Assembly: GCA_963681505.1 (NCBI GenBank)
Contig: OY811979.1
Span: forward strand, 1,225,430-1,289,429
DNA: 64,000 bases
Direction of reading: 5' to 3'
Source: Eunapius fragilis
Taxonomy: Eukaryota > Porifera > Demospongiae > Spongillida > Spongillidae
The notes beneath the pieces are model-generated. The model worked only from the letters and a program-made list of their open reading frames with translations. It made no database searches and was not told the DNA's origin. Below are positions 27,060 to 64,000 of the stretch, piece after piece. How positions within the stretch are numbered: the first letter of the stretch is position 1; every line of letters begins with the position of its first letter. The position numbers and the translations under genes are program-made.

Positions 27060-27085
27060 ATGTATGGGTGCTATTCGTTTGGACC
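27060..27085. other. Satellite A / satellite B junction
   Basis: Satellite A runs unaltered to CATTGAAATGTATGGGTG (ending at 27,070), where the next expected bases are GGAACCTAC. Instead the sequence reads CTATTCGTTTGGACCAATTG, which is satellite B in its ordinary phase (B has a GGGAGCTATTCG variant elsewhere). The shared short run TGGG at the join is possible microhomology. There is no spacer, target-site duplication or transposon end, so the boundary looks like a direct end-joining or recombination junction between two mature arrays. Confidence 0.92.
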
Positions 27086-27137
27086 AATTGCTCCCAATTG
27101 CTCCCGCGGGAGCAATTCGGAGCAATTCGTTTGGACC

Positions 27138-27172
27138 AATTGCTCCCAATTGCTCCCGCATTCGTTTGGACC
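27138..27172. repeat. Example of the 35-bp truncated satellite B unit
   Basis: The first of many short units, recognised by CTCCCGCATTCGTTTGG. It keeps both left-arm decamers and the GC centre but lacks the next 17 bp, which are nearly the entire right arm of the palindrome. The remaining bases are ATTCGTTTGGACC. Identical truncations recur throughout the array (for example near 27,710, 28,308, 28,951, 30,107, 31,050, 36,240, 42,915, 44,500, 60,905 and 63,020). Confidence 0.93.
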
Positions 27173-28377
27173 AATTGCTCCCAATTGCTGCCGCGGGAGC
27201 GATTGGGAGCAAGTCGTTTGGACCAATTGCTCCCAATTGCTCCCGCGGGAGCGATTGGGAGCAATTCGTTTGGACCAATTGCTCCCAATTGCTCCCGCGG
27301 GAGCGATTGGGAGCAATTCGTTTGGACCAATTGCTCACAATTGCTCCCGCGGGAGCGATTCGGAGCAATTCGTTTGGACCAATTGCTCACAATTGCTCCC
27401 GCGGGAGCGATTGGGAGCAATTTGTTTGGACCAATTGCTCCCAATTGCTCCCGCGAGAGCGATTGGGAGCAATTCGTTTGGACCAATTGCTCCCAATTGC
27501 TCCCGCGGGAGCGATTGGGAGCAATTCGTTTGGACCAATTGCTCCCAATTGCTCCCGCGGGAGCGATTGGGAGCAATTCGTTTGGACCAATTGCTCCCAA
27601 TTGCTCCCGCGGGAGCAATTCGGAGCAATTCGTTTGGACCAATTGCTCTCAATTGCTCCCGCGGGAGCAATTCGGAGCAATTCGTTTGGACCAATTGCTC
27701 CCAATTGCTCCCGCATTCGTTTGGACCAATTGCTCCCAATTGCTCCCGCGGGAGCGATTGGGAGCAATTCGTTTGGACCAATTGCTCCCAATTGCTCCCG
27801 CGGGAGCATTTCGGAGCAATTCGTTTGGACCAATTGCTCCTAATTGCTCCCGCGGGAGCGATAGGGAGCAATTCGTTTGGACCAATTCTTCCCAATTGCT
27901 CCCGCGGGAGCGATTGGGAGCAATTCGTTTGGACCAATTGCTCCCAGTTGCTCCCGCGGGAGCGATTGGGAGCATTTCGTTTGGACAAGTTGCTCCCAAT
28001 TGATCCCGCGCGAGCGATTGGGAGCTATTCGTTTGGACCAATTGCTCCCAATTGCTCCCGCGGGAGCAATTCTGAGCAATTCGTTTGGACCAATTGCTCC
28101 CAATTGCTCCCGCTTTCGTTTGGAACAATTGCTCCCAATTGCTCCCGCGGGAGCGATTCGGAGCATTTCGTTTGGACCAATTGCTCCCAATTGCTCCCGC
28201 GCGAGCGATTGGGAGCAATTCGTTTGGACCAATTGCTCCCAATTGCTCCCGCGGGAGCAATTCTGAGCTATTCGTTTGGACCAATTGCTCCCAATTGCTC
28301 CCGCATTCGTTTGGACCAATTGCTCCCAATTGCTCCCGCGGGAGCGATTCGGAGCAATTCGTTTGGACCAATTGCTC

Positions 28378-29720
28378 GCGCGGGAGCGATTCCGAGCAAT
28401 TCGTTTCGACCAATTGCTCCTAATTGCTCCCGTGGGAGCGATTCGGAGCAATTCGTCTGGACCATTTGCTCCCAATTGCTCCCGCGGGAGCGATTCGGAG
28501 CATTTAGTTTGGACCAATTGCTCCCAAATGTTCCCGCAGGAGCGATTGGGAGCAATTCGTTTGGACCAGTTGCTCCCAATTGCTCCCGCGCGAGCGATTG
28601 GGAGCAATTCGTTTGGACCAATTGCTCCCAATTGCTCCCGGGGAGCAATTCTGAGCAATTCGTTTGGACCAATTGCTCCCAATTGCTCCCGCGGGAGCGA
28701 TTGGGAGTAATTCGTTTGGACCAATTGCTCCCAATTGCTTCCGCGGGAGCAATTCGGAGCAATTCGTTTGGACCAATTGCTCCCAATTGCTCCGGCGGGA
28801 GCGATTGGGAGCAATTCGTTTGGACCAATTGCTCCCAATTGCTCCCGCTGGAGCGATTGGGAGCAATTCGTTTGGACCAATTGCTCCCAATTGCTCCCGC
28901 GGGAGCAATTCGGAGCAATTCGTTTGGACCAATTGCTCCCAATTGCTCCCGCATTCGTTTGGACCAATTGCTCCCAATTGCTCCCGCGGGAGCGATTGGG
29001 AGCAATTCGTTTGGACCAATTGCTCCCAATTGCTCCCGTGGGAGCGATTGGGAGCAATTCGTTTGGACCAATTGCTCCCAATTGCTCCCGGGGGAGCGAT
29101 TGGGAGCAATTTGTTTGGACCAATTGCTCGCGTTGGAGCGATTCCGAGCAATTCGTTTCGACCAATTGCTCCTAATTGCTCCCGTGGGAGCGATTCGGAG
29201 CAATTCGTCTGGACCAATTGCTCCCAATTGCTCCCGCGGGAGCGATTCGGAGCATTTAGTTTGGACCAATTGCTCCCAATTGTTCCCGCAGGAGCGATTG
29301 GGAGCAATTCGTTTGGACCAGTTGCTCCCAATTGCTCCCGCGCGAGCGATTGGGAGCAATTCGTTTGGACCAATTTCTCCCAATTGCTCCCGGGGAGCAA
29401 TTCTGAGCAATTCGGTTGGACCAATTGCTCCCAATTGCTCCCGCGGGAGCGATTGGGAGCAATTCGTTTGGTCCAATTGCTCCCAATTGCTTCCGCGGGA
29501 GCAATTCGGAGCAATTCGTTTGGACCAAATGCTCCCAATTGCTCCGGCGGGAGCGATTGGGAGCAATTCGTTTGGACCAATTGCTCCCAATTGCTCCCGC
29601 TGGAGCGATTGGGAGCAATTCGTTTGGACCAATTGCTCCCAATTGCTCCCGCGGGAGCAATTCGGAGCAATTCGTTTGGACCAATTGCTCCCAATTGCTC
29701 CCGCATTCGTTTGGACCAAT
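28378..29720. repeat. Satellite B duplication, 752-bp offset
   Basis: Bases about 28,378-28,968 recur at about 29,130-29,720. Copy-specific markers shared by both: GAGCGATTCCGAGC near 28,385 and 29,137, CATTTAGTTTGGACC near 28,501 and 29,253, TTCCCGCAGGAGCG near 28,531 and 29,283, and TCCCGGGGAGCAATTCTG near 28,636 and 29,388. A scatter of single-base differences (for example CCAATTGCTC versus CCAATTTCTC near 28,619 and 29,371) shows this copy pair is older than those at 42-57 kb. Confidence 0.85.
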
Positions 29721-30437
29721 AGCTCCCAATTGCTCCCGCGGGAGCGATTGGGAGCAATTCGCTTGGACCAATTCTTCCCAATTGCTCCCGCGGGAGCGAT
29801 TGGGACCAATTCGTTTGGACCATTTGCTCCCAATTGCTCCAGCGGGAGCGATTGGGAGCAATTCGTTTGGACCAATTGCTCCCAATTGCTCCCGCGGGAG
29901 CGATTGGGAGCAATTCGTTTGGACCAATTGCTTCCAATTGCTCCCGCGGGAGCGATTGGGAGCAATTCGTTTGAACCGATTGCTCCTAATTGCTCCCGCG
30001 GGAGCGATTGGGAGCAATTCGTTTGGACCAATTGCTCCCAATTGCTCCCGCTGGAGCAATTCGGAGCAATTCGTTTGGACCAATTGCTCCCAATTGCTCC
30101 CGCATTCGTTTGGACCAATTGCTCCCAATTGCTCCAGCGGGAGCGATTGGGAGCAATTCGTTTGGACCAATTGCTCCCAATTGCTCCCGCGGGAGCGATT
30201 GGGAGCAATTCGTTGGACCATTTGCTCCCAATTGCTCCCGCTGGAGCGATTGGGAGCAATTTGTTTGGACCAATTGCTCCCAATAGCTCCCGCGAAAGCG
30301 ATTGGGAGCAATTCGTTTGGACCAATTGCACCCAATTGCTCCCGCACGAGCAATTCGGAGCAATTCGTTTTGATCAATTGCTCCCAATTGCTCCCGTATT
30401 CGTTTGGACCAATTGCTCCCAATTGCTCCCGTGGACC

Positions 30438-30479
30438 AATTGCTCCCAATTGCTCCCGCGGGAGCAATTGGGAGCAATT
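30438..30479. repeat. Perfect 42-bp palindrome within satellite B
   Basis: In this unit the right arm reads GGGAGCAATTGGGAGCAATT instead of the usual GCGATT form, so both 21-bp arms are exactly complementary around the CCGCGG centre (between 30,458 and 30,459). Most units carry one mismatch in the arms; this shows the fully self-complementary form also exists. Confidence 0.9.
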
Positions 30480-32349
30480 CGTTTGGACCAATTGCTCTCG
30501 CGGGAGCGATTGGGAGCAATTCGTATGGACCAATTGCTCCCAATTGCTCCCGCGGGAGCAATTCGGAGCATTTCGTTTGGACCAATTGCTCCTAATTGCT
30601 CCCGCCGGAGCGATTGGGAGCAATTCGTTTGGACCAATTGCTCCCAATTGCTCCCGCGGGAGCAATTCGGAGCAGTTGGTTTGGACCAATTGCTCCCAAT
30701 TGCTCCCGCATTCGTTTGGACCAATTGCTCCCAATTGCTCACGTGGGAGCGATTGGGAGCAATTCGTTTGGACCAATTGCTCCCAATTGCTCCCGCGGGA
30801 GCGATTGGGAGCAATTCGTTTGGACCAATTCCTCCTAATTGCTCCCGCGGGAGCGATTGGGAGCTATTCGTTTGGACCAATTGCTCCCAATTGCTCCCGC
30901 GGGAGCGATTGGGAGCAATTCGTTTGGACCAAATGCTCCCACTTGCTCCCGCGGCAGCGATTGGGAGCAATTCGTTTGGACCAATTGCTCCCAATTGCTC
31001 CCGCGGGAGCAATTCGGAGCAATTCGTTTGGACCAATTGCTCCCAATTGCTCCCGCATTCGTTTGGACCAATTGCTCCCAATAGCTCCCGCGGACCAATT
31101 GCTCCCAATTGCTCCCGCGGGAGCGATTGGGAGCAATTCGTTTGGACCAATTGCTCCCAATTGCTGCAGCGGGAGCGATTCGGAGTAATTCGTTTGGACC
31201 AATTGCTCCCAATTGCTCCCGCGGGAGCGATTCGGAGCAATTCGTTTGGACCAATTGCTCCCAATTGCTCCCGCATTCGTTTGGACCAATTGCTCCCAAT
31301 TGCTCCCGCGGGAGCGATTCGGAGGAATTCGTTTGGACCAAATGCTCCCAATTGCTCCCGCGGGAGCGATTGGGAGCAATTCGTTTGGACCAATTGCTCC
31401 CAATTGCTCCCGCTGGAGCAATTGGGAGCAATTCGTTTGGACCAATAGCTCCCAATTGCTCCCGCGGGAGCGATTGGGAGCAATTCGTTTGGACCAATTG
31501 CTCCCAATTGCTCCCGCGGGTGCAATTCGGAGCAATTCGTTTGGACCAATTGCTCCCAATTTCTCCCGCATTCGTTTGGACCAATTGCTCCCAATAGCTC
31601 CCGCGGGAGCGATTCGGAGCAATTTGTTTGGACCAATTGCTCCCAAATGCTCTCGCGGGAGCGATTCGGAGCAATTCGTTTCGACCAATTGCTCCCAATT
31701 GCTCCCGTGGGAGCGATTCGGAGCAATTCGTCTGGACCAATTGCTCCCTATTGCTCCAGCGGGAGCGATTCGGAGCAATTCGTTTGGACCAATTGCTCCC
31801 AGTTGTTCCCGCGGGAGCGATTCGGAGCAATTCGTTTGGACCAATTGCTCCCAATTGCTCCCGCGGGAGCGATTGGGAGCTATTCGTTTGGACCAATTGC
31901 TCCCAATTGCTCCCGCGGCAGCGATTGGGAGCAATTCGTTTGTACCAATTGCTCAAAATTGCTCCCGCGGGAGCGATTGGGAGCAATTCGTTTGGACCAA
32001 TTGCTCCCGGGGGAGCGATTGGGAGCAATTCGTTTGGACCAATTGCTCCCAATTGCTCCCGTGGGAGCGATTGGGAGCAATTCGTTTGGACCAAATGCTC
32101 CCAATTGCTCCCGCGGCAGCGATTGGGAGCAATTCGTTTGGACCAATTGCTCCCAATTGCTCCCGCGGGAGCAATTCGGAGTAATTCGTTTGGACCAATT
32201 GCTCAAAATTGCTCCCGCGGGAGCGATTGGGAGCAATTCGTTTGGACCAATTGCTCCCGGGGGAGCGATTGGGAGCAATTCGTTTGGACCAATTGCTCCC
32301 AATTGCTCCTGCTGGAGCGATTTTGAGCAATTCGTTTGGACCAGTTGCT

Positions 32350-41757: not shown

Positions 41758-44700
41758 GACCAATTGCTCCCATTTGCTCCCGTGGGAGCGATTCGGATCA
41801 ATTCGTCTGGACCAATTGCTCCCTATTGCTCCAGCGGGAGCGATTCGGAGCAATTCGTTTGGACCAATTGCTCCCAGTTGTTCCCGCGGGAGCGATTGGG
41901 AGCCATTCGTTTGGACCAATTGCTCCCAATTGCTCCCGCGGGAGCGATTGGGAGCAATTCGTTAGGACCATTTGCTCCCAATTGCTCCTGCGGGAGCGAT
42001 TGGGAGCAATTCGTTTGGACCAATTGCTCCCAATTGCTCCCGCTGGAGCGAATTTGAGCAATTCGTTTGGACCAGTTGCTCCCAATTGCTCCCGCGGGAG
42101 CAATTCGGAGCAATTCGTTTCGACCAATTGCTCCCAATTGCTCCCTTGGGAGCGATTCGGAGCAATTCGTCTGGACCAATTGCTCCCTATTGCTCCAGGG
42201 GGAGCGATTCGGAGCAATTCGTTTGGACCAATTGCTCCCAATTGTTCTCGCGGAAGCGATTGGGAGCAATTCATTAGGACCAATTGCTCCCAATTGCCCC
42301 CGCGGGAGCGATTGGGAGCAATTCGTTTGGACCAATTGCTCAAAATTGCTCCCGCGGGAGCGATTGGGAGCAATTCGTTTGGACCAATTGCTCCCAATTG
42401 CTCCCGGGGGAGCGATTGGGAGCAATTCGTTTGGACCAATTGCTCCCAAATGCTCCCGCGGTAGCGTTTGGGAGAAATTCGTTTGGACCAAATGCTCCCA
42501 ATTGCTCCCGCGGGAGCGATTGGGAGCTATTCGTTTGGACCAATTGCTCCCAATTGCTCCCGCGGGAGCGATTGGGAGCAATTCGTTTGGACCAATTGCT
42601 CAAAATTGCTCCCGCGGGAGCGATTGGGAGCAATTCGTTTGGACCAATTGCTCCCGGGGGAGCGATTGGGAGCAATTCGTTTGGACCAATTGCTCCCAAT
42701 TGCTCCCGCGGGAGCGATTGGGAGCAATTCGTTTGGACCAAATGCTCCCAATTGCTCCCGCGGCAGCAAATGGGAGCAATTCGTTTGGACCAATTGCTCC
42801 CAATTGCTCCCGCGGGAGCGATTGGGAGCAATTCGTTTGGACCAATTGCTCCCAATTGCTCCCGTGGGAGCAATTTGGAGCAATTCGTTTGGACCAATTG
42901 CTCCCAATTGCTCCCGCATTCGTTTGGACCAATTGCTCCCAATTGCTCCCGCATTCGTTTGGACCAATTGCTCCCAATTGCTCCCGCGGGAGCGATTGGG
43001 AGCATTTCGTTTGGACCAATTGCTCCCGGGGGAGCGATTGGGAGCAATTCGTTTGGACCTATTGCTCCCAATTGCTCCCGCGGGAGCGATTGGGAGCAAT
43101 TCGTTTGGACCAAATGCTCCCAATTGCTCCCGCGGCAGCGATTGGGAGCAATTCGTTTGGACCAATTGCTCCCAATTGCTCCCGCGGGAGCAATTCGGAG
43201 CAATTCGTTTGGACCAATTGCTCCCAATTGCTCCCGCTGGGGCGATTGGGAGCAATTCGTTTGGACCAATTGCTCCCAAATGCTCCCGCGGGAGCAATTC
43301 GGAGCAATTCGTTTGGACCAATTGCTCCCAATTGCTCCCGCATTCGTTTGGACCAATTGCTCCCAATAGCTCCCGCGGGAGCGATTGGGAGCAATTTGTT
43401 TGGACCAATTGCTCCCAATTGCTCCCGCGGGAACGATTGGGAGCAATTCGTTTGGACCAATTGCTCCCAATTGCTCCCGCTGGAGCGATTGGGAGCAATT
43501 TGTTTGGACCAATTGCTCCCAATTGCTCCCGCGGGAGCGATTGGGAGCAATTCGTTTGGACCAATTGCTCCCAATTGCTCCCACGGGAGCAATTCGGAGC
43601 AATTCGTTTATGACCAATTGCTCCCAATTGCTCCCGCGGTAGCGATTGGGAGCAATTCGTATGGACCAATTGCTCCCAATTGCTCCCGCGGGAGCGATTC
43701 GGAGCAATTCGTTTGGACCAATTGCTCCCAATTGCTCCCGCATTAGTTTGGACCAATTGCTCCCAATTGCTCCCGCAGGAGCGATTCGGAGGAATTCGTT
43801 TGGACCAAATGCTCCCAATTGCTCCCGCGGGAGCGATTGGGAGCAATTCGTTTGGACCAATTGCTCCCAATTGCTCCCGCGGGAGCGATTGGGAGCAATT
43901 CGTCTGGACCAATTGCTCAAAATTGCTCCCGCGGAAGCGATTTTGAGCAATTCGTTTGGACCAGTTGCTCCCAATTGCTCCCGCGGGAGCAATTCGGAGC
44001 AATTCGTTTCGACTAATTGCTCCCAATTGCTCCCGTGGGAGCGATTCGGAGCAATTTGTCTGGACCAATTGCTCCCTAAGGCTCCAGGGGGAGCGATTGG
44101 GAGCAATTCGTTTGGACCAATTGCTCCCAATTGCTCCCGCGGGAGCGATTGGGAGCAATTCGTTTGGACCAATTGCTCCCAATTGCTCCAGCGGGAGCGA
44201 TTGGGAGCAATTCGTTTGGACCAATTGCTCCCAATTGCTCCCGCGGGAGCGATTGGGAGCAATTCGTTTGGACCAGTTGCTCCCAATTGCTCCCGCGCGA
44301 GCGATTGGGAGCAATTCGTTTGGACCAATTGCTCCCAATTGCTCCCGCGGGAGCAATTCGGAGCAATTCGTTTGGACCAATTGCTCCCAATTGCTCCCGC
44401 TGGGGCGATTGGGAGCAATTCGTTTGGACCAATTGCTCCCAAATGCTCCCGCGGGAGCGATTCGGAGCAATTCGTTTGGACCAATTGCTCCCAATTGCTC
44501 CCGCATTCGTTTGGACCAATTGCTCCCAATTGCTCCGGCGGGAGCGATTCGGAGGAATTCGTTTGGACCAATTGCTCCCAATTGCTCCCGCGGGAGCGAT
44601 TGGGAGCAATTCGTTTGGACCAATTGCTCCCAATTGCTCCCGCGGGAGCGATTGGGAGCAATTCGTTTGGACCAATTGCTCCCGCGGGAGCAATTGGGAG

Positions 44701-47392
44701 CAATTCGTCTGGACCAATTGCTCCCATTTGCTCCCGCGGGAGCGATTGGGAGCAATTCGTTTGGACCAATTGCTCCCAATTGCTCCCACGGGAGCGATTG
44801 GGAGCAATTCGTTTGGACCAATTGCTCCCAATTGCTCCCGCGGGAGCAATTCGTTTTGACCAATTGCTCCCAATTGCTCCCGCATTCGTTTGGACCAATT
44901 GCTCCCAATTGCTCCCGCGTGAGCGATTCGGAGCAATTCGTTAGGACCAATTGCTCCCAATTGCTCCCGCGGGAGCGATTGGGAGCATTTCGTTTGGACC
45001 AATTGCTCCCAATTGCTCCCACGGGAGCGATTGGGAGCAATTCGTTTGGACCAATTGCTCCCAATTGCTCCCGCGGGAGCGATTGGGAGCAATTCGTTTG
45101 GACCAATTGCTCAAAATTGCTCCCGCGGGAGAGATTGGGAGCATTTCGATTGGACCAATTGCTCCCGGGGGAGCGATTGGGAGCAATTCGTTAGGACCAA
45201 TTGCTCCCAATTGCTCCCGCCGGAGCGATTGGGAGCAATTCGTTTGGACCAATTGCTCCCAATTGCTCCCGCTGGAGCGATTTTGAGCAATTCGTTTGGA
45301 CCAGTTGCTCCCAATTGCTCCCGCGGGAGCAATTCGGAGCAATTCGTTTCGACTAATTGCTCCCAATTGCTCCCGTGGGAGCGATTCGGAGCAATTCGTC
45401 TGGACCAATTGCTCCCTATTGCTCCAGGGGGAGCGATTCGGAGCAATTCGTTTGGACCAATTGCTCCCAATTGTTCCCGCGGGAGCGATTGGGAGCAATT
45501 CGTTTGGACCAATTGCTCCCAATTGCTCCTGCGGAAGCGAATGGGAGCAATTCGTTTGGACCAATTGCTCCCAATTGCTCCCGCGGGAGCGATTGGGAGC
45601 AATTCGTTTGGACCACTTGCTCCCAATTGCTCCCGCGGGAGCGATTGGGAGCAATTCGTTTGGACCAATTGCTCCCAATTGCTCCCGTGGGAGCAATTCG
45701 GAGCAATTCGTTTGGACCAATTGCTCCCAATTGCTCCCGCATTCGTTTGGACCAATTGCTCCCAATTGCTCCCGCGGGAGCGAATGGGAGCATTTCGTTT
45801 GGACCAATTGCCCCCGGGGGAGCGATTGGGAGCAATTCGTTTGGACCTATTGCTCCCAATTGCTCCCGCGGGAGCGATTGGGAGCAATTCGTTTGGACCA
45901 AATGCTCCCAATTGCTCCCGCGGCAGCGATTGGGAGCAATTCGTTTGGACCAATTGCTCCCAATTGCTCCCGCGGGAGCAATTCGGAGCAATTCGTTTGG
46001 ACCAATTGCTCCCAATTGCTCCCGCTGGGGCGATTGGGAGCAATTCGTTTGGACCAATTGCTCCCAATTGCTCCCGCGGGAGCAATTCGGAGGAATTCGT
46101 TTGGACCAATTGCTCCCAACAGCTCCCGCGGGAGCGATTGGGAGCAATTCGTTTGGACCAATTGCTCCCAATTGCTCCCGCGGGAACGATTGGGAGCAAT
46201 TCGTTTGGACCAATTGCTCCCAATTGCTCCCGCTGGAGCGATTGGGAGCAATTTGTTTGGACCAATTGCTCCCAATTGCTCCCGCGGGAGCGATTGGGAG
46301 CAATTCGTTTGGACCAATTGCTCCCAATTGCTCCCACGGGACAATTCGGAGCAATTCGTTTATGACCAATTGCTCCCAATTGCTCCCGCGGTAGCGATTG
46401 GGAGCAATTCGTATGGACCAATTGCTCCCAATTGCTCCCGCGGGAGCGATTCGGAGCAATTCGTTTGGACCAATTGCTCCCAATTGCTCCCGCATTCGTT
46501 TGGACCAATTGCTCCCAATTGCTCCCGCGGGAGCGATTCGGAGGAATTCGTTTGGACCAAATGCTCCCAATTGCTCCCGCGGGAGCGATTGGGAGCAATT
46601 CGTCTGGACCAATTGCTCCCAATTGCTCCCGCGGGAGCGATTGGGAGCAATTCGTCTGGACCAATTGCTCAAAATTGCTCCCGCGGAAGCGATTTTGAGC
46701 AATTCGTTTGGACCAGTTGCTCCCAATTGCTCCCGCGGGAGCAATTCGGAGCAATTCGTTTCGACCAATTGCTCCCAATTGCTCCCGTGGGAGCGATTCG
46801 GAGCAATTCGTCTGGACCAATTGCTCCCTATTGCTCCAGCGGGAGCGATTCGGAGCAATTCGTTTGGACCAATTGCTCCCAGTTGTTCCCGCGGGAGCGA
46901 TTGGGAGCCATTCGTTTGGATCAATTGCTCCCAATTGCTCCCGCGGGAGCGATTGGGAGCAATTCGTTAGGACCAATTGCTCCCAATTGCTCCCGCGGGA
47001 GCGATTGGGAGCAATTCGTTTGGACCAATTGCTCCCAATTGCTCCCGCTGGAGCGATTTTGAGCAATTCGTTTTGACCAGTTGCTCCCAATTGCTCCCGC
47101 GGGAGCAATTCGGAACAATTCGTTTCGACCAATTGCTCCCAATTGCTCCCGTGGGAGCGATTCGGAGCAATTCGTCTGGACCAATTGCTCCCTATTGCTC
47201 CAGGGGGAGCGATTCGGAGCAATTCGTTTGGACCAATTGCTCCCAATTGTTCCCGCGGGAGCGATTGGGAGCAATTCGTTTGGACCAATTGCTCCCAATT
47301 GCTCCCGCGGAAGCGAATGGGAGCAATTCGTTAGGACCAATTGCTCCCAATTGCCCCCGCGGGAGCGATTGGGAGCAATTCGTTTGGACCAA
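41758..47392. repeat. Large satellite B duplication, copy 1 (5,635 bp)
   Basis: This block recurs at 47,699-53,333 with a constant offset of 5,941 bp. The left limit is set by TCGTTTCGAC (41,751-41,760) versus TCGTTTGGAC (47,692-47,701); the right limit by ACCAAATGCTCC (from 47,390) versus ACCAATTGCTCA (from 53,331). Sampled positions across the whole block are identical, including rare markers such as GCGGTAGCGTTTGGGAG at 42,459 and 48,400, CTCCCTAAGGCTCC at 44,073 and 50,014, and GGGACAATTCGG at 46,338 and 52,279. Near-identity over 5.6 kb implies a very recent event, or an assembly duplication. Confidence 0.92.
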
Positions 47393-47698
47393 ATGCTCCC
47401 AATTGCTCCCGCGGCAGCAAATGGGAGCAATTCGTTTGGACCAATTGCTCCCAATTGCTCCCTTGGGAGCGATTCGGAGCAATTCGTCTGGACCAATTGC
47501 TCCCTATTGCTCCAGGGGGAGCGATTCGGAGCAATTCGTTTGGACCAATTGCTCCCAATTGTTCTCGCGGAAGCGATTGGGAGCAATTCATTAGGACCAA
47601 TTGCTCCCAATTGCCCCCGCGGGAGCGATTGGGAGCAATTCGTTTGGACCAATTGCTCAAAATTGCTCCCGCGGGAGCGATTGGGAGCAATTCGTTTG
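47393..47698. repeat. Unshared 306-bp satellite B linker between the two large copies
   Basis: The two 5.6-kb copies are not directly abutted. This 306-bp stretch lies between them and is made of B units that resemble other parts of the same block: 47,393-47,440 resembles 42,741-42,790 (GCGGCAGCAAATGGG), and about 47,451-47,690 resembles 42,130-42,380 (TCCCTTGGGAGCG, GTTCTCGCGGAAGCG, TTCATTAGGACC). It looks like a patchwork left at the exchange point. Confidence 0.82.
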
Positions 47699-50600
47699 GA
47701 CCAATTGCTCCCATTTGCTCCCGTGGGAGCGATTCGGATCAATTCGTCTGGACCAATTGCTCCCTATTGCTCCAGCGGGAGCGATTCGGAGCAATTCGTT
47801 TGGACCAATTGCTCCCAGTTGTTCCCGCGGGAGCGATTGGGAGCCATTCGTTTGGACCAATTGCTCCCAATTGCTCCCGCGGGAGCGATTGGGAGCAATT
47901 CGTTAGGACCATTTGCTCCCAATTGCTCCTGCGGGAGCGATTGGGAGCAATTCGTTTGGACCAATTGCTCCCAATTGCTCCCGCTGGAGCGAATTTGAGC
48001 AATTCGTTTGGACCAGTTGCTCCCAATTGCTCCCGCGGGAGCAATTCGGAGCAATTCGTTTCGACCAATTGCTCCCAATTGCTCCCTTGGGAGCGATTCG
48101 GAGCAATTCGTCTGGACCAATTGCTCCCTATTGCTCCAGGGGGAGCGATTCGGAGCAATTCGTTTGGACCAATTGCTCCCAATTGTTCTCGCGGAAGCGA
48201 TTGGGAGCAATTCATTAGGACCAATTGCTCCCAATTGCCCCCGCGGGAGCGATTGGGAGCAATTCGTTTGGACCAATTGCTCAAAATTGCTCCCGCGGGA
48301 GCGATTGGGAGCAATTCGTTTGGACCAATTGCTCCCAATTGCTCCCGGGGGAGCGATTGGGAGCAATTCGTTTGGACCAATTGCTCCCAAATGCTCCCGC
48401 GGTAGCGTTTGGGAGAAATTCGTTTGGACCAAATGCTCCCAATTGCTCCCGCGGGAGCGATTGGGAGCTATTCGTTTGGACCAATTGCTCCCAATTGCTC
48501 CCGCGGGAGCGATTGGGAGCAATTCGTTTGGACCAATTGCTCAAAATTGCTCCCGCGGGAGCGATTGGGAGCAATTCGTTTGGACCAATTGCTCCCGGGG
48601 GAGCGATTGGGAGCAATTCGTTTGGACCAATTGCTCCCAATTGCTCCCGCGGGAGCGATTGGGAGCAATTCGTTTGGACCAAATGCTCCCAATTGCTCCC
48701 GCGGCAGCAAATGGGAGCAATTCGTTTGGACCAATTGCTCCCAATTGCTCCCGCGGGAGCGATTGGGAGCAATTCGTTTGGACCAATTGCTCCCAATTGC
48801 TCCCGTGGGAGCAATTTGGAGCAATTCGTTTGGACCAATTGCTCCCAATTGCTCCCGCATTCGTTTGGACCAATTGCTCCCAATTGCTCCCGCATTCGTT
48901 TGGACCAATTGCTCCCAATTGCTCCCGCGGGAGCGATTGGGAGCATTTCGTTTGGACCAATTGCTCCCGGGGGAGCGATTGGGAGCAATTCGTTTGGACC
49001 TATTGCTCCCAATTGCTCCCGCGGGAGCGATTGGGAGCAATTCGTTTGGACCAAATGCTCCCAATTGCTCCCGCGGCAGCGATTGGGAGCAATTCGTTTG
49101 GACCAATTGCTCCCAATTGCTCCCGCGGGAGCAATTCGGAGCAATTCGTTTGGACCAATTGCTCCCAATTGCTCCCGCTGGGGCGATTGGGAGCAATTCG
49201 TTTGGACCAATTGCTCCCAAATGCTCCCGCGGGAGCAATTCGGAGCAATTCGTTTGGACCAATTGCTCCCAATTGCTCCCGCATTCGTTTGGACCAATTG
49301 CTCCCAATAGCTCCCGCGGGAGCGATTGGGAGCAATTTGTTTGGACCAATTGCTCCCAATTGCTCCCGCGGGAACGATTGGGAGCAATTCGTTTGGACCA
49401 ATTGCTCCCAATTGCTCCCGCTGGAGCGATTGGGAGCAATTTGTTTGGACCAATTGCTCCCAATTGCTCCCGCGGGAGCGATTGGGAGCAATTCGTTTGG
49501 ACCAATTGCTCCCAATTGCTCCCACGGGAGCAATTCGGAGCAATTCGTTTATGACCAATTGCTCCCAATTGCTCCCGCGGTAGCGATTGGGAGCAATTCG
49601 TATGGACCAATTGCTCCCAATTGCTCCCGCGGGAGCGATTCGGAGCAATTCGTTTGGACCAATTGCTCCCAATTGCTCCCGCATTAGTTTGGACCAATTG
49701 CTCCCAATTGCTCCCGCAGGAGCGATTCGGAGGAATTCGTTTGGACCAAATGCTCCCAATTGCTCCCGCGGGAGCGATTGGGAGCAATTCGTTTGGACCA
49801 ATTGCTCCCAATTGCTCCCGCGGGAGCGATTGGGAGCAATTCGTCTGGACCAATTGCTCAAAATTGCTCCCGCGGAAGCGATTTTGAGCAATTCGTTTGG
49901 ACCAGTTGCTCCCAATTGCTCCCGCGGGAGCAATTCGGAGCAATTCGTTTCGACTAATTGCTCCCAATTGCTCCCGTGGGAGCGATTCGGAGCAATTTGT
50001 CTGGACCAATTGCTCCCTAAGGCTCCAGGGGGAGCGATTGGGAGCAATTCGTTTGGACCAATTGCTCCCAATTGCTCCCGCGGGAGCGATTGGGAGCAAT
50101 TCGTTTGGACCAATTGCTCCCAATTGCTCCAGCGGGAGCGATTGGGAGCAATTCGTTTGGACCAATTGCTCCCAATTGCTCCCGCGGGAGCGATTGGGAG
50201 CAATTCGTTTGGACCAGTTGCTCCCAATTGCTCCCGCGCGAGCGATTGGGAGCAATTCGTTTGGACCAATTGCTCCCAATTGCTCCCGCGGGAGCAATTC
50301 GGAGCAATTCGTTTGGACCAATTGCTCCCAATTGCTCCCGCTGGGGCGATTGGGAGCAATTCGTTTGGACCAATTGCTCCCAAATGCTCCCGCGGGAGCG
50401 ATTCGGAGCAATTCGTTTGGACCAATTGCTCCCAATTGCTCCCGCATTCGTTTGGACCAATTGCTCCCAATTGCTCCGGCGGGAGCGATTCGGAGGAATT
50501 CGTTTGGACCAATTGCTCCCAATTGCTCCCGCGGGAGCGATTGGGAGCAATTCGTTTGGACCAATTGCTCCCAATTGCTCCCGCGGGAGCGATTGGGAGC

Positions 50601-53333
50601 AATTCGTTTGGACCAATTGCTCCCGCGGGAGCAATTGGGAGCAATTCGTCTGGACCAATTGCTCCCATTTGCTCCCGCGGGAGCGATTGGGAGCAATTCG
50701 TTTGGACCAATTGCTCCCAATTGCTCCCACGGGAGCGATTGGGAGCAATTCGTTTGGACCAATTGCTCCCAATTGCTCCCGCGGGAGCAATTCGTTTTGA
50801 CCAATTGCTCCCAATTGCTCCCGCATTCGTTTGGACCAATTGCTCCCAATTGCTCCCGCGTGAGCGATTCGGAGCAATTCGTTAGGACCAATTGCTCCCA
50901 ATTGCTCCCGCGGGAGCGATTGGGAGCATTTCGTTTGGACCAATTGCTCCCAATTGCTCCCACGGGAGCGATTGGGAGCAATTCGTTTGGACCAATTGCT
51001 CCCAATTGCTCCCGCGGGAGCGATTGGGAGCAATTCGTTTGGACCAATTGCTCAAAATTGCTCCCGCGGGAGAGATTGGGAGCATTTCGATTGGACCAAT
51101 TGCTCCCGGGGGAGCGATTGGGAGCAATTCGTTAGGACCAATTGCTCCCAATTGCTCCCGCCGGAGCGATTGGGAGCAATTCGTTTGGACCAATTGCTCC
51201 CAATTGCTCCCGCTGGAGCGATTTTGAGCAATTCGTTTGGACCAGTTGCTCCCAATTGCTCCCGCGGGAGCAATTCGGAGCAATTCGTTTCGACTAATTG
51301 CTCCCAATTGCTCCCGTGGGAGCGATTCGGAGCAATTCGTCTGGACCAATTGCTCCCTATTGCTCCAGGGGGAGCGATTCGGAGCAATTCGTTTGGACCA
51401 ATTGCTCCCAATTGTTCCCGCGGGAGCGATTGGGAGCAATTCGTTTGGACCAATTGCTCCCAATTGCTCCTGCGGAAGCGAATGGGAGCAATTCGTTTGG
51501 ACCAATTGCTCCCAATTGCTCCCGCGGGAGCGATTGGGAGCAATTCGTTTGGACCACTTGCTCCCAATTGCTCCCGCGGGAGCGATTGGGAGCAATTCGT
51601 TTGGACCAATTGCTCCCAATTGCTCCCGTGGGAGCAATTCGGAGCAATTCGTTTGGACCAATTGCTCCCAATTGCTCCCGCATTCGTTTGGACCAATTGC
51701 TCCCAATTGCTCCCGCGGGAGCGAATGGGAGCATTTCGTTTGGACCAATTGCCCCCGGGGGAGCGATTGGGAGCAATTCGTTTGGACCTATTGCTCCCAA
51801 TTGCTCCCGCGGGAGCGATTGGGAGCAATTCGTTTGGACCAAATGCTCCCAATTGCTCCCGCGGCAGCGATTGGGAGCAATTCGTTTGGACCAATTGCTC
51901 CCAATTGCTCCCGCGGGAGCAATTCGGAGCAATTCGTTTGGACCAATTGCTCCCAATTGCTCCCGCTGGGGCGATTGGGAGCAATTCGTTTGGACCAATT
52001 GCTCCCAATTGCTCCCGCGGGAGCAATTCGGAGGAATTCGTTTGGACCAATTGCTCCCAACAGCTCCCGCGGGAGCGATTGGGAGCAATTCGTTTGGACC
52101 AATTGCTCCCAATTGCTCCCGCGGGAACGATTGGGAGCAATTCGTTTGGACCAATTGCTCCCAATTGCTCCCGCTGGAGCGATTGGGAGCAATTTGTTTG
52201 GACCAATTGCTCCCAATTGCTCCCGCGGGAGCGATTGGGAGCAATTCGTTTGGACCAATTGCTCCCAATTGCTCCCACGGGACAATTCGGAGCAATTCGT
52301 TTATGACCAATTGCTCCCAATTGCTCCCGCGGTAGCGATTGGGAGCAATTCGTATGGACCAATTGCTCCCAATTGCTCCCGCGGGAGCGATTCGGAGCAA
52401 TTCGTTTGGACCAATTGCTCCCAATTGCTCCCGCATTCGTTTGGACCAATTGCTCCCAATTGCTCCCGCGGGAGCGATTCGGAGGAATTCGTTTGGACCA
52501 AATGCTCCCAATTGCTCCCGCGGGAGCGATTGGGAGCAATTCGTCTGGACCAATTGCTCCCAATTGCTCCCGCGGGAGCGATTGGGAGCAATTCGTCTGG
52601 ACCAATTGCTCAAAATTGCTCCCGCGGAAGCGATTTTGAGCAATTCGTTTGGACCAGTTGCTCCCAATTGCTCCCGCGGGAGCAATTCGGAGCAATTCGT
52701 TTCGACCAATTGCTCCCAATTGCTCCCGTGGGAGCGATTCGGAGCAATTCGTCTGGACCAATTGCTCCCTATTGCTCCAGCGGGAGCGATTCGGAGCAAT
52801 TCGTTTGGACCAATTGCTCCCAGTTGTTCCCGCGGGAGCGATTGGGAGCCATTCGTTTGGATCAATTGCTCCCAATTGCTCCCGCGGGAGCGATTGGGAG
52901 CAATTCGTTAGGACCAATTGCTCCCAATTGCTCCCGCGGGAGCGATTGGGAGCAATTCGTTTGGACCAATTGCTCCCAATTGCTCCCGCTGGAGCGATTT
53001 TGAGCAATTCGTTTTGACCAGTTGCTCCCAATTGCTCCCGCGGGAGCAATTCGGAACAATTCGTTTCGACCAATTGCTCCCAATTGCTCCCGTGGGAGCG
53101 ATTCGGAGCAATTCGTCTGGACCAATTGCTCCCTATTGCTCCAGGGGGAGCGATTCGGAGCAATTCGTTTGGACCAATTGCTCCCAATTGTTCCCGCGGG
53201 AGCGATTGGGAGCAATTCGTTTGGACCAATTGCTCCCAATTGCTCCCGCGGAAGCGAATGGGAGCAATTCGTTAGGACCAATTGCTCCCAATTGCCCCCG
53301 CGGGAGCGATTGGGAGCAATTCGTTTGGACCAA
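47699..53333. repeat. Large satellite B duplication, copy 2 (5,635 bp)
   Basis: This is the second copy of 41,758-47,392. Both copies preserve the exact order of 52-, 42- and 35-bp units and all rare variants that I compared. The right part of this copy (from about 53,106) is also the start of the 2,063-bp repeat, so the two duplications overlap and at least two successive events are recorded here. Confidence 0.92.
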
Positions 53334-56300: not shown

Positions 56301-57300
56301 TGGAGCGATTGGGAGCAATTCGTTTGGACCAATTGCTCCCAATTGCTCCCGCTGGAGCGATTGGGAGCAATTCGTTTGGACCAATAGCTCCCAATTGCTC
56401 CCGCGGGAGCGATTGGGAGCAATTCGTTTGGACCAATTGCTCCCAATTGCTCCCTCGGGAGCGATTGGGAGCAATTCGTTTGGACCAATTGCTCCCAATT
56501 GCTCCCGCGGGAGCGATTGGGAGCATTTCGTTTGGACCAATTGCTCCCAATTGCTCCCTCGGGAGTGATTGGGAGCAATTCGTTTGGACCAATTGCTCCC
56601 AAGTGCTCCCGCGGCAGCGATTGGGAGCAATTCGTTTGGACCAATTGCTCCCAATTGCTCCCGCGGGTGCAATTCGGAGCAATTCGTTTGGACCAATTGC
56701 TCCCAATTTCTCCCGCATTCGTTTGGACCAATTGCTCCCAATTGCTCCCGCGGGAGCGATTCGGAGCAATTTGTTTGGACCAATTGCTCCCAAATGCTCT
56801 CGCGGGAGCGATTCGGAGCAATTCGTTTCGACCAATTGCTCCCAATTGCTCCCGTGGGAGCGATTCGGAGCAATTCGTCTGGACCAATTGCTCCCTATTG
56901 CTCCAGCGGGAGCGATTCGGAGCAATTCGTTTGGACCAATTGCTCCCAGTTGTTCCCGCGGGAGCGATTGGGAGCCATTCGTTTGGACCAATTGCTCCCA
57001 ATTGCTCCCGCGGGAGCGATTGGGAGCAATTCGTTAGGACCAATTGCTCCCAATTGCTCCCGCGGGAGCGATTGGGAGCAATTCGTTTGGACCAATTGCT
57101 CCCAATTGCTCCCGCTGGAGCGATTTTGAGCAATTCGTTTGGACCAGTTGCTCCCAATTGCTCCCGCGGGAGCAATTCGGAGCAATTCGTTTCGACCAAT
57201 TGCTCCCATTTGCTCCCGTGGGAGCGATTCTGAGCAATTCGTCTGGACCAATTGCTCCCTATTGCTCCAGGGGGAGCGATTCGGAGCAATTCGTTTGGAC
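53106..57300. repeat. Satellite B higher-order repeat, 2,063-bp period
   Basis: From 53,106 to about 55,230 the sequence matches 55,169 to about 57,290 at a constant offset of 2,063 bp. Markers: GGACCAATTGCTACC near 53,519 and 55,582, GCAATTTTTTTGGACC near 53,682 and 55,745, GGGAGCTATTCGGAGC near 53,979 and 56,042, and CTCGGGAGTGATTGG near 54,496 and 56,559. A third partial copy continues past 57,232 but differs by single bases (CTCCC instead of CTACC near 57,654) and then rearranges. The period equals 40 full units minus 17 bp net, reflecting truncated units inside the block. Confidence 0.9.
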
Positions 57301-57399
57301 CAATTGCTCCCAATTGTTCCCGCGGGAGCGATTGGGAGCAATTCGTTTGGACCAATTGCTCCCAATTGCTCCCGCGGAAGCGAATGGGAGCAATTCGTT

Positions 57400-60300: not shown

Positions 60301-60500
60301 GATTGGGAGCAATTCGTTTGGACCAATTGCTCAAAATTGCTCCCGCGGGAGCGATTGGGAGCAATTCGTTTGGACCAATTGCTCCCAATTGCTCCCGGGG
60401 GAGCGATTGGGAGCAATTCGTTTGGACCAATTGCTCCCAAATGCTCCCGCGGTAGCGTTTGGGAGAAATTCGTTTGGACCAAATGCTCCCAATTGCTCCC
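57400..60500. repeat. Nested satellite B duplications of about 1.0-1.1 kb
   Basis: Segments here repeat at several offsets. About 57,408-58,070 recurs from about 58,500 (offset 1,092 bp, or 21 units). About 58,302-58,480 recurs from 59,342 (1,040 bp, or 20 units) and from 60,337 (995 bp further). The marker GCGGTAGCGTTTGGGAG followed by AAATTCG is at about 58,415, 59,454 and 60,449. The marker GGAGCAATTCATAAGG is at about 58,218, 59,258 and 60,253. The overlapping offsets imply successive exchanges with shifting breakpoints rather than one amplification. Confidence 0.82.
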
Positions 60501-62040
60501 GCGGGAGCTATTGGGAGCTATTCGTTTGGACCAATTGCTCCCAATTGCTCCCGCGGGAGCGATTGGGAGCAATTCGTTTGGACCAATTGCTCAAAATTGC
60601 TCCCGCGGGAGCGATTGGGAGCAATTCGTTTGGACCAATTGCTCCCGGGGGAGCGATTGGGAGCAATTCGTTTGGACCAATTGCTCCCAATTGCTCCCGC
60701 GGGAGCGATTGGGAGCAATTCGTTTGGACCAAATGCTCCCAATTGCTCCCGCGGCAGCAAATGGGAGCAATTCGTTTGGACCAATTGCTCCCAATTGCTC
60801 CCGCGGGAGCGATTGGGAGCAATTCGTTTGGACCAATTGCTCCCAATTGCTCCCGTGGGAGCAATTTGGAGCAATTCGTTTGGACCAATTGCTCCCAATT
60901 GCTCCCGCATTCGTTTGGACCAATTGCTCCCAATTGCTCCCGCGGGAGCGATTGGGAGCATTTCGTTTGGACCAATTGCTCCCGGGGGAGCGATTGGGAG
61001 CAATTCGTTTGGACCTATTGCTCCCAATTGCTCCCGCGGGAGCGATTGGGAGCAATTCGTTTGGACCAAATGCTCCCAATTGCTCCCGCGGCAGCGATTG
61101 GGAGCAATTCGTTTGGACCAATTGCTCCCAATTGCTCCCGCGGGAGCAATTCGGAGCAATTCGTTTGGACCAATTGCTCCCAATTGCTCCCGCTGGGGCG
61201 ATTGGGAGCAATTCGTTTGGACCAATTGCTCCCAATTGCTCCCGCGGGAGCAATTCGGAGCAATTCGTTTGGACCAATTGCTTCCAATTGCTCCCGCATT
61301 CGTTTGGACCAATTGCTCCCAATAGCTCCCGCGGGAGCGATTGGGAGCAATTCGTTTGGACCAATTGCTCCCAATTGCTCCCGCGGGAACGATTGGGAGC
61401 AATTCGTTTGGACCAATTGCTCCCAATTGCTCCCGCTGGAGCGATTGGGAACAATTTGTTTGGACCAATTGCTCCCAATTGCTCCCGCGGGAGCGATTGG
61501 GAGCAATTCGTTTGGACCAATTGCTCCCAATTGCTCCCACGGGAGCAATTCGGAGCAATTCGTTTATGACCAATTGCTCCCAATTGCTCCCGCTGTAGCG
61601 ATTGGGAGCAATTCGTATGGACCAATTGCTCCCAATTGCTCCCGCGGGAGCGATTCGGAGCAATTCTTTTGGACCAATTGCTCCCAATTGCTCCCGCATT
61701 CGTTTGGACCAATTGCTCCCAATTGCTCCCGCGGGAGCGATTCGGAGGAATTCGTTTGGACCAAATGCTCCCAATTGCTCCCGCGGGAGCGATTGGGAGC
61801 AATTCGTTTGGACCAATTGCTCCCAATTGCTCCCGCGGGAGCGATTGGGAGCAATTCGTCTGGACCAATTGCTCAAAATTGCTCCCGCGGAAGCGATTTT
61901 GAGCAATTCGTTTGGACCAGTTGCTCCCAATTGCTCCCGCGGGAGCAATTCGGAGCAATTTGTTTCGACCAATTGCTCCCAATTGCTCCCGTGGGAGCGA
62001 TTCGGAGCAATTCGTCTGGACCATTTGCTCCCTATTGTTC
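60290..62040. repeat. Third, mosaic copy of part of the 5.9-kb block
   Basis: This segment follows the unit order of 42,300-44,040 (and 48,241-49,980), including GCGGTAGCGTTTGGG, GCGGCAGCAAATGGG, GGTTCATTTATGACC-type insertion (TTCGTTTATGACC near 61,559) and the GGAGGAATTCG variant near 61,745. One of a pair of adjacent 35-bp truncated units present at 42,907-42,960 is missing near 60,905, and several single bases differ (for example GCGATTGGGAACAATTTG near 61,441). It is an older or independently edited relative of the two near-identical copies. Confidence 0.8.
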
Positions 62041-64000
62041 CAGGGGGAGCGATTCGGAGCAATTCGTTTGGACCAATTGCTCCCAATTGCTCCCGCATTC
62101 GTTTGGACCAATTGCTCCCAATTGCTCCCGCGGGAGCGATTGGGAGCATTTCGTTTGGACCAATTGCTCCCGGGGGAGCGATTGGGAGCAATTCGTTTGG
62201 ACCAATTGCTCCCAATTGCTCCCGCGGGAGCAATTCTGAACAATTCGGTGGACCAATTGCTCCCAATTGCTTCCGCATTCGTTTGGACCAATTGCTCCCA
62301 ATTTCTCCCGCATTCGTTTGGACCAATTGCTCCCAATTGCTCCCGCGGGAGCGATTCGGAGCAATTTGTTTGGACCAATTGCTCCCAAATGCTCCCGCGG
62401 GAGCGATTCGGAGCAATTCGTTTCGACCAATTGCTCCCAATTGCTCCCGTGGGAGCGATTCGGAGCAATTCGTCTGGACCAATTGCTCCCTATTGCTCCA
62501 GCGGGAGCGATTCGGAGCAATTCGTTTGGACCAATTGCTCCCAGTTGTTCCCGCGGGAGCGATTGGGAGCCATTCGTTTGGACCAATTGCTCCCAATTGC
62601 TCCCGCGGTAGCGATTGGGAGCAATTCGTTAGGAACAATTGCTCCCAATTGCTCCCGCGGGAGCGATTGGGAGCAATTCGTTAGGACCAATTGCTCCCAA
62701 TTGCTCCCGCGGGAGCGATTGGGAGCAATTCGTTTGGACCAATTGCTCCCAATTGCTCCCGCTGGAGCGATTTTGAGCAATTCGTTTGGACCAGTTGCTC
62801 CCAATTGCTCCCGCGGGAGCAATTCGGAGCAATTCGTTTGGACCAATTGCTCCCAATTGCTCCCGCGGGAGCGATTGGGAGCAATTCGTTTGGACCAAAT
62901 GCTCCCAATTGCTCCCGCGGCAGCGATTGGGAGCAATTCGTTTGGACCAATTGCTCCCAATTGCTCCCGCGGGAGCAATTCGGAGTAATTCGTTTGGACC
63001 AATTGCTCCCAATTGCTCCCGCATTCGTTTGGACCAATTGCTCCCAATTGCTCCCGCGGACCAATTGCTCCCAATTGCTCCCGCGGGAGCGATTGGGAGC
63101 AATTCGTTTGGACCAATTGCTCCCGCGGGAGCGATTGGGAGCAATTCGGTTGGACCAATTGCTCCCAATTGCTCCCGTGGGAGCAATTCGGAGCAATTCG
63201 TTTGGACAATTGCTCCCAATTGCTCCCGCATTCGTTTGGACCAATAGCTCCCAATTGCTCCCGCGGGAGCGATTGGGAGCAATTCGTTTGGACCAATTGC
63301 TCCCAATTGCTCCCGCGGGAGCGATTGGGAGCATTTCGTTTGGACCAATTGCTCCCGCGGGAGCGATTGGGAGCAATTCGTTTGGACCAATTGCTCCCAA
63401 TTGCTCCCGCTGGTGCGATTGGGAGCAATTCGTTTGGACCAATTGCTCCCAATTGCTCCCGCTGGAGCGATTGGGAGCAAATCGTTTGGACCAATTGCTC
63501 CCAATTGCTCCCGCGGGAGCGATTGGGAGAAATTCGTTTGGACCAATTGCTCCCAATTGCTCCCGCGGGAGCGATTGGGAGCAATTCGTTTGGACCAATT
63601 GCTCCCAATTGCTCCCGCGGGAGCGATTGGGAGCAATTCGTTTGGACCAATTGCTCCCAATTGCTCCCGCGGGAGCGATTGGGAGCAATTCGTTTGGACC
63701 AATTGCTCCCAATTGCTCCCGCGGCAGCGATTGGGAGCAATTCGTTTGGACCAGTTGCTCCCAATTGCTCCCGCGCGAGCGATTGGGAGCAATTCGTTTG
63801 GACCAATTGCTCCCATTTGCTCCCGCGGGAGCAATTCGGAGCAATTCGTTTGGACCAATTGCTCCCAATTGCTCCCGCATTCGTTTGGACCAATTGCTCC
63901 CAATTGCTCCCGCGGGAGCGATTGGGAGCAAGTCGTTTGGACCAATTGCTCCCAATTGCTCCCGCGGGAGCAATTCTGAGCAATTCGTTTGGATCAATTG

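What the first reader, a model, noticed from the sequence alone, without database searches (positions are those of the whole stretch)
27071..64000. Satellite B is a tandem array of near-perfect 42-bp palindromes built from one decamer
The 52-bp unit resolves into a 10-bp building block: AATTGCTCCC twice, GC, the inverted decamer twice (GGGAGCGATT, GGGAGCAATT), plus a 10-bp spacer CGTTTGGACC. The inverted repeat covers 42 of 52 bp, with one T opposite G mismatch. About 700 such palindromes in a row is unusual: long palindromes are normally unstable, yet this array expanded to at least 37 kb. It suggests origin by foldback of a decamer tandem, and a DNA able to form cruciforms every 52 bp or to shift between two alternative hairpins. 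Enrichment of dyad symmetry at centromeres in several eukaryotes is known; a centromeric role here is inference.
Basis: partly seen in the sequence, partly recalled or inferred. Interest (0 to 1): 0.85.

Follow-up and report, generated by a model that had tools for sequence, protein, structure and literature searches.

The report
Sponge chromosome-end palindromic satellite repeat
Near the ends of several chromosomes of the freshwater sponge Eunapius fragilis lies repetitive DNA whose 52-letter unit is almost its own mirror image, so a strand could fold back on itself, but nothing found here shows that this folding is selected for or that the repeat is a centromere.

Summary
Window 27,071-64,000 is the first 36.9 kb of a 58-kb tandem array (satB, 52-bp unit) on chromosome 9 of the freshwater sponge Eunapius fragilis. 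The consensus is a 42-bp near-palindrome (20 of 21 pairs) of four decamers around GC, plus a 10-bp spacer. Real units are rougher: 936 of 1,131 intervals are 52 bp; these pair 18.6 of 21 on average and 2 are perfect; 110 are 35-bp units lacking most of one arm. The same consensus recurs on chromosomes 2 and 7. SatB arrays or long hits were located on 8 of 23 chromosomes (a minimum), 9 of 9 within 1.35 Mb of an end, on chromosome 7 near both ends, which argues against a centromere marker; two short fragments are interior. Predicted fold-back is extreme (median z about -10 to -12; satellite A -0.4), but the arms mutate independently and are not clearly better conserved than the spacer: no sign that pairing is selected. 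Multi-kb blocks at 99.4-100% identity and a co-duplicated MITE show growth by segment duplication. Best reading: a subterminal dyad-symmetric satellite, new member of a known kind, with orientation switches like those reported for Tribolium.

The parts
27071..64000 (+). satB array, first 36.9 kb of 58.3 kb (continues to C9:~1,310,761): 52-bp units CGTTTGGACC AATTGCTCCC AATTGCTCCC GC GGGAGCGATT GGGAGCAATT
41758..47392 (+). 5.6-kb block of satB units, first of a duplicated pair (offset 5,941 bp, identity 1.0000 at the precision printed)
   Evidence: array position 14,688; window = array + 27,070
47699..53333 (+). second copy of the 5.6-kb satB block
42883..42987 (+). example of three consecutive 35-bp units (spacer + left arm + GC + ATT), i.e. 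units lacking most of the right palindrome arm
   Evidence: TRF period 35, 3.0 copies, 100% match
1..11008 (-). satellite A (185/208-bp monomers), one orientation; 56 monomer cores
11009..27070 (+). satellite A in the opposite orientation; 85 monomer cores; orientation switch inside a monomer at about 11,008; abuts satB

Best explanation
SatB is a non-coding subterminal satellite of Eunapius fragilis. Shown: the located arrays lie near chromosome ends (tens of kb on chromosomes 2, 7, 9 and probably 11), on chromosome 9 beside two other mostly subterminal satellites; multi-kb blocks have been duplicated, and identical units occur on different chromosomes. Inferred: unequal exchange and template switching inside arrays and between chromosome ends keep copies alike; the dyad-symmetric unit was fixed when the satellite arose and is carried along by this homogenisation, while point mutations erode both arms independently. 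Fold-back during replication or repair would explain loss of most of one arm (35-bp unit), gain or loss of decamers (42-bp and longer variants) and the orientation switches on chromosome 7. Its likely role is passive: subtelomeric heterochromatin and a buffer for exchange between chromosome ends.
For: Species and chromosome from assembly size, 23 chromosomes, mitochondrial contig and chromosome lengths. Locations: chr 2 right end, 5 right, 7 left and right, 9 left, 10 left, 11 left, 13 left, 22 right: 9 of 9 located arrays or long hits within 1.35 Mb of an end, a zone holding 28.4% of the assembly (cut-off chosen after seeing chr 9; 8 of 9 lie within 1.0 Mb, a zone of 21.0%). On chr 5 the 800 bp read (11,680,500-11,681,299 of 11,683,238) are satB throughout and the contig ends in TTAGGG repeats. 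Block duplications in the chr 9 array: 10 self-matches over 1.5 kb, identity 0.9936-1.0000, the longest 6.4 kb at 0.9998 and 5.6 kb at 1.0000. A 213-bp MITE with 8-bp flanking duplication GGACCAAT occurs three times at the same unit position, the second copy 1,591 bp after the first, matching a direct self-match at offset 1,591, identity 0.9954. Exact 52-mers shared between chromosomes: chr 9 and 7, 15; chr 9 and 2, 7; chr 2 and 7, 6 distinct units. No selection on pairing seen: 18.582 pairs against 18.565 (sd 0.010) with arms permuted, all 936 units; distinct units 18.176 against 18.153 (sd 0.024); chr 7 17.971 against 17.964 (sd 0.033); chr 2 18.200 against 18.265 (sd 0.059); doubly changed pairs 16, expected 17.2.
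Against: No chromatin, FISH, small-RNA or CENP-A data. Centromere positions of this sponge are unknown, so 0.65-1.31 Mb from an end (chr 7 left, 9, 11, 13) could still be the centromere of an acrocentric chromosome. The place lists were cut at 100, so other chromosomes and other positions are not excluded; chr 10, 13 and 22 rest on 1, 1 and 2 long exact hits. Two short satB fragments are interior (chr 1 at 14.44 Mb, chr 3 at 4.14 Mb). The permutation with all chr 9 units is 1.8 sd above the mean, so a very weak effect is not excluded; the left outer decamer is somewhat less variable than the spacer (0.036 against 0.050 in distinct units). None of the 9 full-length units read from chr 5 is shared exactly with the other arrays. 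The assembly has 802 gaps, so array lengths and near-identical blocks need read support.
Confidence: 0.68

Rival explanations
1. SatB is (part of) the centromere: the dyads extrude cruciforms or hairpins that help recruit CENP-A, as proposed for dyad-rich centromeres of other species.
For: Strong predicted non-B potential; long arrays; on chr 9 satB lies between satellites A and C in one complex at about 1.22-1.35 Mb. Dyad enrichment at some centromeres and HJURP binding of Holliday junctions are described in PMC9070824 (passages read).
Against: Near both ends of chr 7; within 2 kb of an assembled telomeric end on chr 5; located on 8 of 23 chromosomes so far, though place lists were cut. Arms do not co-vary. 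PMC9070824 itself reports that only the Y centromere of D. melanogaster is enriched in dyads.
Confidence: 0.12
2. Structure is selected at the RNA level: transcripts of one strand fold back into long dsRNA (the T/G mismatch and part of the spacer become G-U pairs) and feed a small-RNA pathway that silences chromosome ends.
For: RNA fold of 312-nt pieces is very stable and the strand carrying the T/G mismatch is more stable in 21 of 25 (chr 9), 9 of 12 (chr 7) and 11 of 12 (chr 2) pieces. A consensus trimer folds into one long stem plus a hairpin (DNA parameters).
Against: Wobble-making against A-C-making transitions are 77:47 (chr 9), 44:30 (chr 7), 12:17 (chr 2) in distinct, non-independent units: not consistent. 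No compensatory change. Neighbouring satC, also dyad-rich, shows the opposite strand preference relative to its given strand (1 of 11), so a strand difference alone means little. Expression not tested.
Confidence: 0.1
3. SatB is a coding tandem repeat: the unit has no stop codon in any of six frames and makes long open frames.
For: 57 ORFs of 400 aa or more in the window, the longest 1,462 aa; consensus is stop-free in all six frames.
Against: Open in all frames on both strands, 52 and 35 bp are not multiples of 3, and the consensus holds no ATG (read from the sequence). A shuffled unit is stop-free on both strands in 0.7% of 20,000 trials, a figure that overstates the surprise because the unit repeats one decamer about four times.
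Confidence: 0.02
4. Assembly artefact: the array, or most of its length, comes from collapsed or mis-joined repeats.
For: 802 gaps, contig N50 0.49 Mb; blocks at up to 1.0000 identity.
Against: HiFi assembly with QV 60.4; no N in the six roughly 10-kb chr 9 and chr 7 loci checked; the unit recurs on several chromosomes with different variants.
Confidence: 0.05

Closest known systems
Satellites with intra-monomer dyad symmetry: Tribolium brevicornis (1,061-bp monomer with ~470-bp inverted segments), T. madens TmSat2 (704-bp monomer, ~300-bp inverted parts), Trichogramma brassicae (385-bp monomer, 80-bp inverted repeats), all as described in passages of PMC13081366
   Same: A large part of each monomer is an inverted repeat, tandemly arrayed, with potential hairpin or cruciform; in T. 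madens arrays also switch orientation.
   Different: Here the unit is only 52 bp, arms 21 bp with no central spacer, built from one decamer; sponge, not insect; located near chromosome ends, whereas the T. madens arrays lie in putative (peri)centromeres.
Dyad-rich centromeric DNA (work by Kasinathan and Henikoff, seen here only through passages of PMC9070824)
   Same: High density of inverted repeats, predicted cruciforms.
   Different: Those surveys concern dyads under 10 bp in centromeric DNA; satB is subterminal and no centromere data exist for it.
Subtelomeric satellites (general class, recalled)
   Same: Blocks near chromosome ends, units shared between chromosomes, segment duplication.
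   Different: The unit is an almost complete palindrome.
Repetitive hairpin-forming elements of sponge mitochondrial DNA (PMC2800124, passages read)
   Same: Short hairpin-forming repeats that proliferate in sponges, freshwater Ephydatia muelleri included.
   Different: Mitochondrial and intergenic; no common origin with satB was tested.

Membership tests
satellite DNA (long tandem arrays of one unit) | head-to-tail array of many copies over tens of kb | tested here: met
   58.3 kb, 1,131 intervals on chr 9
satellite DNA (long tandem arrays of one unit) | same family on several chromosomes | tested here: met
   arrays or long hits on 8 of 23 chromosomes, a minimum; consensus identical on chr 9, 7, 2
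dyad-symmetric satellite (Tribolium brevicornis type) | inverted repeat covering much of the monomer | tested here: met
   42 of 52 bp, consensus 20 of 21 pairs
dyad-symmetric satellite (Tribolium brevicornis type) | structure forms in the cell | not testable with these tools
   only computed folds
subtelomeric satellite | arrays close to chromosome ends | tested here: met
   9 of 9 located arrays or long hits within 1.35 Mb of an end, chr 5 array within 2 kb of a TTAGGG contig end; two short interior fragments excepted; lists of places were cut
centromeric satellite | one site per chromosome, all chromosomes | tested here: not met
   chr 7 has satB near both ends; presence on all chromosomes not fully tested because place lists were cut
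centromeric satellite | CENP-A occupancy | not testable with these tools
   no chromatin data
macro-dyad satellite arrays (as in T. madens) | sub-arrays in opposite orientation | tested here: met
   satA switches at window ~11,008; satB on chr 7 switches strand 6 times among exact 84-bp hits between 649 and 702 kb (one of the blocks rests on a single hit; DNA between hits not read)
macro-dyad satellite arrays (as in T. madens) | inverted sub-arrays as the predominant arrangement, with conserved inversion sites | tested here: inconclusive
   exact 84- or 124-bp satB hits on chr 2 and chr 9 are all in one orientation; conservation of inversion sites was not examined

The most novel reading that the evidence does not exclude
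An array whose every unit is nearly self-complementary is a source of dsRNA or fold-back DNA from any start point and either strand without antisense transcription: a self-silencing chromosome-end sequence, or a substrate for fold-back recombination that spreads and inverts blocks at sponge chromosome ends (a dyad-driven subtelomere). The evidence does not exclude either.
Probability: 0.12. Interest if true: 0.75.

Novelty: new member of a known kind. Interest (0 to 1): 0.45.

Why it matters
Sponge satellites and centromeres seem hardly described: one search of the held open-licence PMC library for papers with sponge, Porifera, satellite DNA and centromere together gave none. This repeat gives a probe for chromosome ends in a freshwater sponge, a case of a palindromic unit shared across chromosomes without signs of selection for pairing, and orientation-switching satellites outside Tribolium, which a 2026 paper said had been documented exclusively in that genus (PMC13081366).

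Tried and rejected
Compensatory change between arms: tested in three arrays, none found. Strand bias of wobble-making changes: inconsistent between chromosomes. Simple precursor of the unit: the isolated chr 1 and chr 3 copies are already about two units long. satA as one large mirror palindrome: the arms around the switch are only paralogous; the best matches between arms (up to 617 bp, identity 0.981) do not start at the switch. Satellite in other collections: no exact match to a 30-mer in viral contigs or to a 22-mer in GTDB genomes; no relative of this genome is held. Coding array: rejected (and rivals). A satA pattern of 163 bp matched only once and was of no use for mapping; a two-times-35-bp pattern matched chr 9 only, 7 of 7. 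The tandem-repeat survey PMC4053949 does not mention sponges in its main text as far as a word search shows. (script) failed on a file name and was repeated.
Full report
What it is in. The window is G000:C9:1,225,430-1,289,429 of a 218,937,333-base assembly with 24 contigs. The lengths of C1-C18 and C22 agree to about 0.01 Mb, and the 28,504-bp mitochondrial contig and the total agree, with Eunapius fragilis odEunFrag1.1 (PMC12616128, passages and section 5 read). C9 is chromosome 9.

Observation. TRF gives a 52-bp period from 27,065 to the window end. Splitting at the spacer (up to 2 mismatches) gives 720 spacers; of 719 intervals 602 are 52 bp, 63 are 35 bp, 26 are 42 bp. The array continues beyond the window to about C9:1,310,761, 58,262 bp in all with 1,131 intervals: 936 of 52 bp, 110 of 35 bp, 41 of 42 bp, 44 of other lengths. 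The consensus has a 42-bp inverted repeat with 20 of 21 pairs. In single 52-bp units pairing is 18.58 of 21 on average; 2 of 936 are perfect. Across the spacer, the alternative hairpin (10-bp arms, 10-nt loop) keeps 9 or 10 pairs in 821 of 1,131 places.

More than chance. Perfect inverted repeats with arms of 10 bp or more and gap up to 20 cover 0.381, 0.356 and 0.385 of 6-kb satB stretches from chr 9, 7 and 2; 0.283 of a satC stretch; 0.0 of a satA stretch; 0.000-0.026 of seven control stretches; 0.0 of one shuffled satB stretch. DNA folding of 156-nt pieces gives median z -11.8 (31 pieces, chr 9), -9.7 (13, chr 7), -12.3 (13, chr 2), -4.6 (21, satC), -0.4 (27, satA); for 39 control pieces the median is undefined because at least one had no variance in its shuffles, and a fraction of 0.10 had z below -3. 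Computed energies: 42-nt palindrome -19.6, spacer-loop hairpin -22.7 kcal/mol; three consensus units fold into one long stem plus one hairpin. These are predictions for a single strand, not evidence of structure in cells.

Where it is. SatB 124-bp exact hits (72, all listed) lie on C2 (17.567-17.622 of 17.636 Mb), C7 (0.650-0.706 and 9.989 of 10.094), C9 (1.253-1.305 of 9.793), C10 (0.052), C11 (0.957-1.000 of 8.775) and C22 (5.467-5.470 of 5.496) (lengths). C13 (0.667 of 7.354) comes from one hit and C5. The 800 bp read at C5:11,680,500-11,681,299 are satB throughout and the contig ends in TTAGGG repeats at 11,683,238. Short fragments of about two units lie inside C1 and C3. A 30-mer with up to 3 mismatches has 6,352 matches in the genome and 994 in the chr 9 array, so roughly 0.37 Mb of satB is assembled. 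The lists of places were cut at 100, so further chromosomes may carry it. SatA and satC are also mostly near ends: satA 124-bp exact hits (85) lie on C3, C4, C8, C9, C10, C13, C17, C19 and C21, all within 1.3 Mb of an end, and the first 10 kb of C2 and C17 hold 85 and 48 satA motifs; satC 94-bp exact hits (37) lie on C8, C9, C13, C19, C22 near ends, with an interior cluster of 8 on C1 at 6.36 Mb. SatB near both ends of C7 and satA near both ends of C3 do not fit a single centromere per chromosome.

How it grows. Direct self-matches of over 1.5 kb within the chr 9 array (10 found) reach 6.4 kb at 0.9998, 5.6 kb at 1.0000, 3.0 kb at 0.998 and 2.7 kb at 0.998 identity; the lowest is 0.9936. A 213-bp foldback element with terminal repeats CAGTGATG...CATCACTG sits three times in the array with the same 8-bp flanking duplication GGACCAAT. 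Its first two copies lie 1,591 bp apart, in a region with a direct self-match of 1,529 bp at offset 1,591; the simplest reading is one insertion copied with its block. Exact 52-mers are shared between chr 9, 7 and 2 (15 for 9 and 7, 7 for 9 and 2, 6 for 2 and 7, distinct; none with the 9 full-length units read from chr 5), and the G/C/T variation at unit position 43 is present on all three. On chr 7 exact 84-bp hits switch strand six times between 649 and 702 kb (list cut there). Exact 84- and 124-bp hits on chr 9 and chr 2 keep one orientation; a few 22-mer hits there lie on the other strand (3 of 573 in the chr 9 array), probably units whose second arm happens to match, not checked.

Is the dyad selected? 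Permuting right arms among units hardly changes pairing: 18.582 against 18.565 (sd 0.010) for all chr 9 units, 1.8 sd; 18.176 against 18.153 (sd 0.024) for distinct units; 17.971 against 17.964 (sd 0.033) on chr 7; 18.200 against 18.265 (sd 0.059) on chr 2. Pairs changed on both sides: 16, expected 17.2, 9 of them Watson-Crick. Variant rates in distinct chr 9 units: spacer 0.050, decamers 0.036, 0.045, 0.057, 0.072, centre GC 0.093. So arms are not clearly more conserved than the spacer. The symmetry looks inherited and spread by homogenisation. The 35-bp unit lacks 17 bp beginning one base from the dyad axis, as hairpin-mediated deletion would give (inference); 42 of the 63 such units in the window have one identical sequence, so it may be few events spread by block duplication.

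Known or new. Satellites with long inverted repeats inside the monomer are known and called not so common in PMC13081366 (passages read): T. brevicornis, T. madens TmSat2, Trichogramma brassicae. The same paper says that macro-dyad arrays had been documented exclusively in Tribolium; one later paper that uses the term does so only in its reference list (PMC13427858, word search). SatB adds a very short, decamer-built, end-located case in a sponge, with orientation switches in satA and satB. Among the titles listed by the PMC searches none is on a sponge nuclear satellite; they cover open-licence papers only and most lists were cut.

Verdict. Observation confirmed with corrections; centromere inference weakened; non-B potential strong in silico, untested in cells; new member of a known kind.

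Noticed in passing
L010:7542-7754, L010:9133-9345, L011:772-984 (C9:~1,306.5-1,309.9 kb): 213-bp foldback MITE, TIR CAGTGATG..., 8-bp flanking duplication GGACCAAT (hAT-like, label recalled), three copies inside satB at the same unit position; its long inner hairpin was read by eye
   Followed up: partly
L011:3350-9900 and hits on to C9:~1,346 kb: satC, 115-bp period built of CCAATTGG/GGCCCAATTGG blocks, also strongly dyad-symmetric; same neighbourhood as satA and satB; an interior cluster on chr 1 at 6.36 Mb
   Followed up: partly
window 11,008: orientation switch of satA inside a monomer; a 24-bp hairpin motif present once or twice seems to give 185- or 208-bp monomers
   Followed up: partly
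window 27,060-64,000: satB consensus has no stop codon in any of six frames; gene predictors could call spurious long proteins here
   Followed up: partly
L011:2747-3112: 121-aa open frame with weak, below-cutoff similarity to Retrotrans_gag (E 0.021), and a weak hit to Chlamy_scaf (E 0.0017, also below its cutoff), between satB and satC
   Followed up: partly
L035:1340-1401 (chr 1, 14.437 Mb): satA-like sequence about 550 bp from an isolated two-unit satB fragment, with a 30-bp minisatellite between them
   Followed up: no
L011:2124-2398: 28-bp minisatellite CTTAAGGTGAGGTAGTTATGACTAGCAG, 9.9 copies, just beyond the satB array
   Followed up: no
L033 (mitochondrial contig), about 230-270 and 650-680: GC-rich hairpin repeats (GGCGGCATC...GATGCCGCTGG), like the hairpin elements known from freshwater sponge mtDNA
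   Followed up: no
L040 (chr 22, 5.4715 Mb): CCACTACCAAT-like minisatellite about 1.1 kb beyond the last listed satB hit
   Followed up: no
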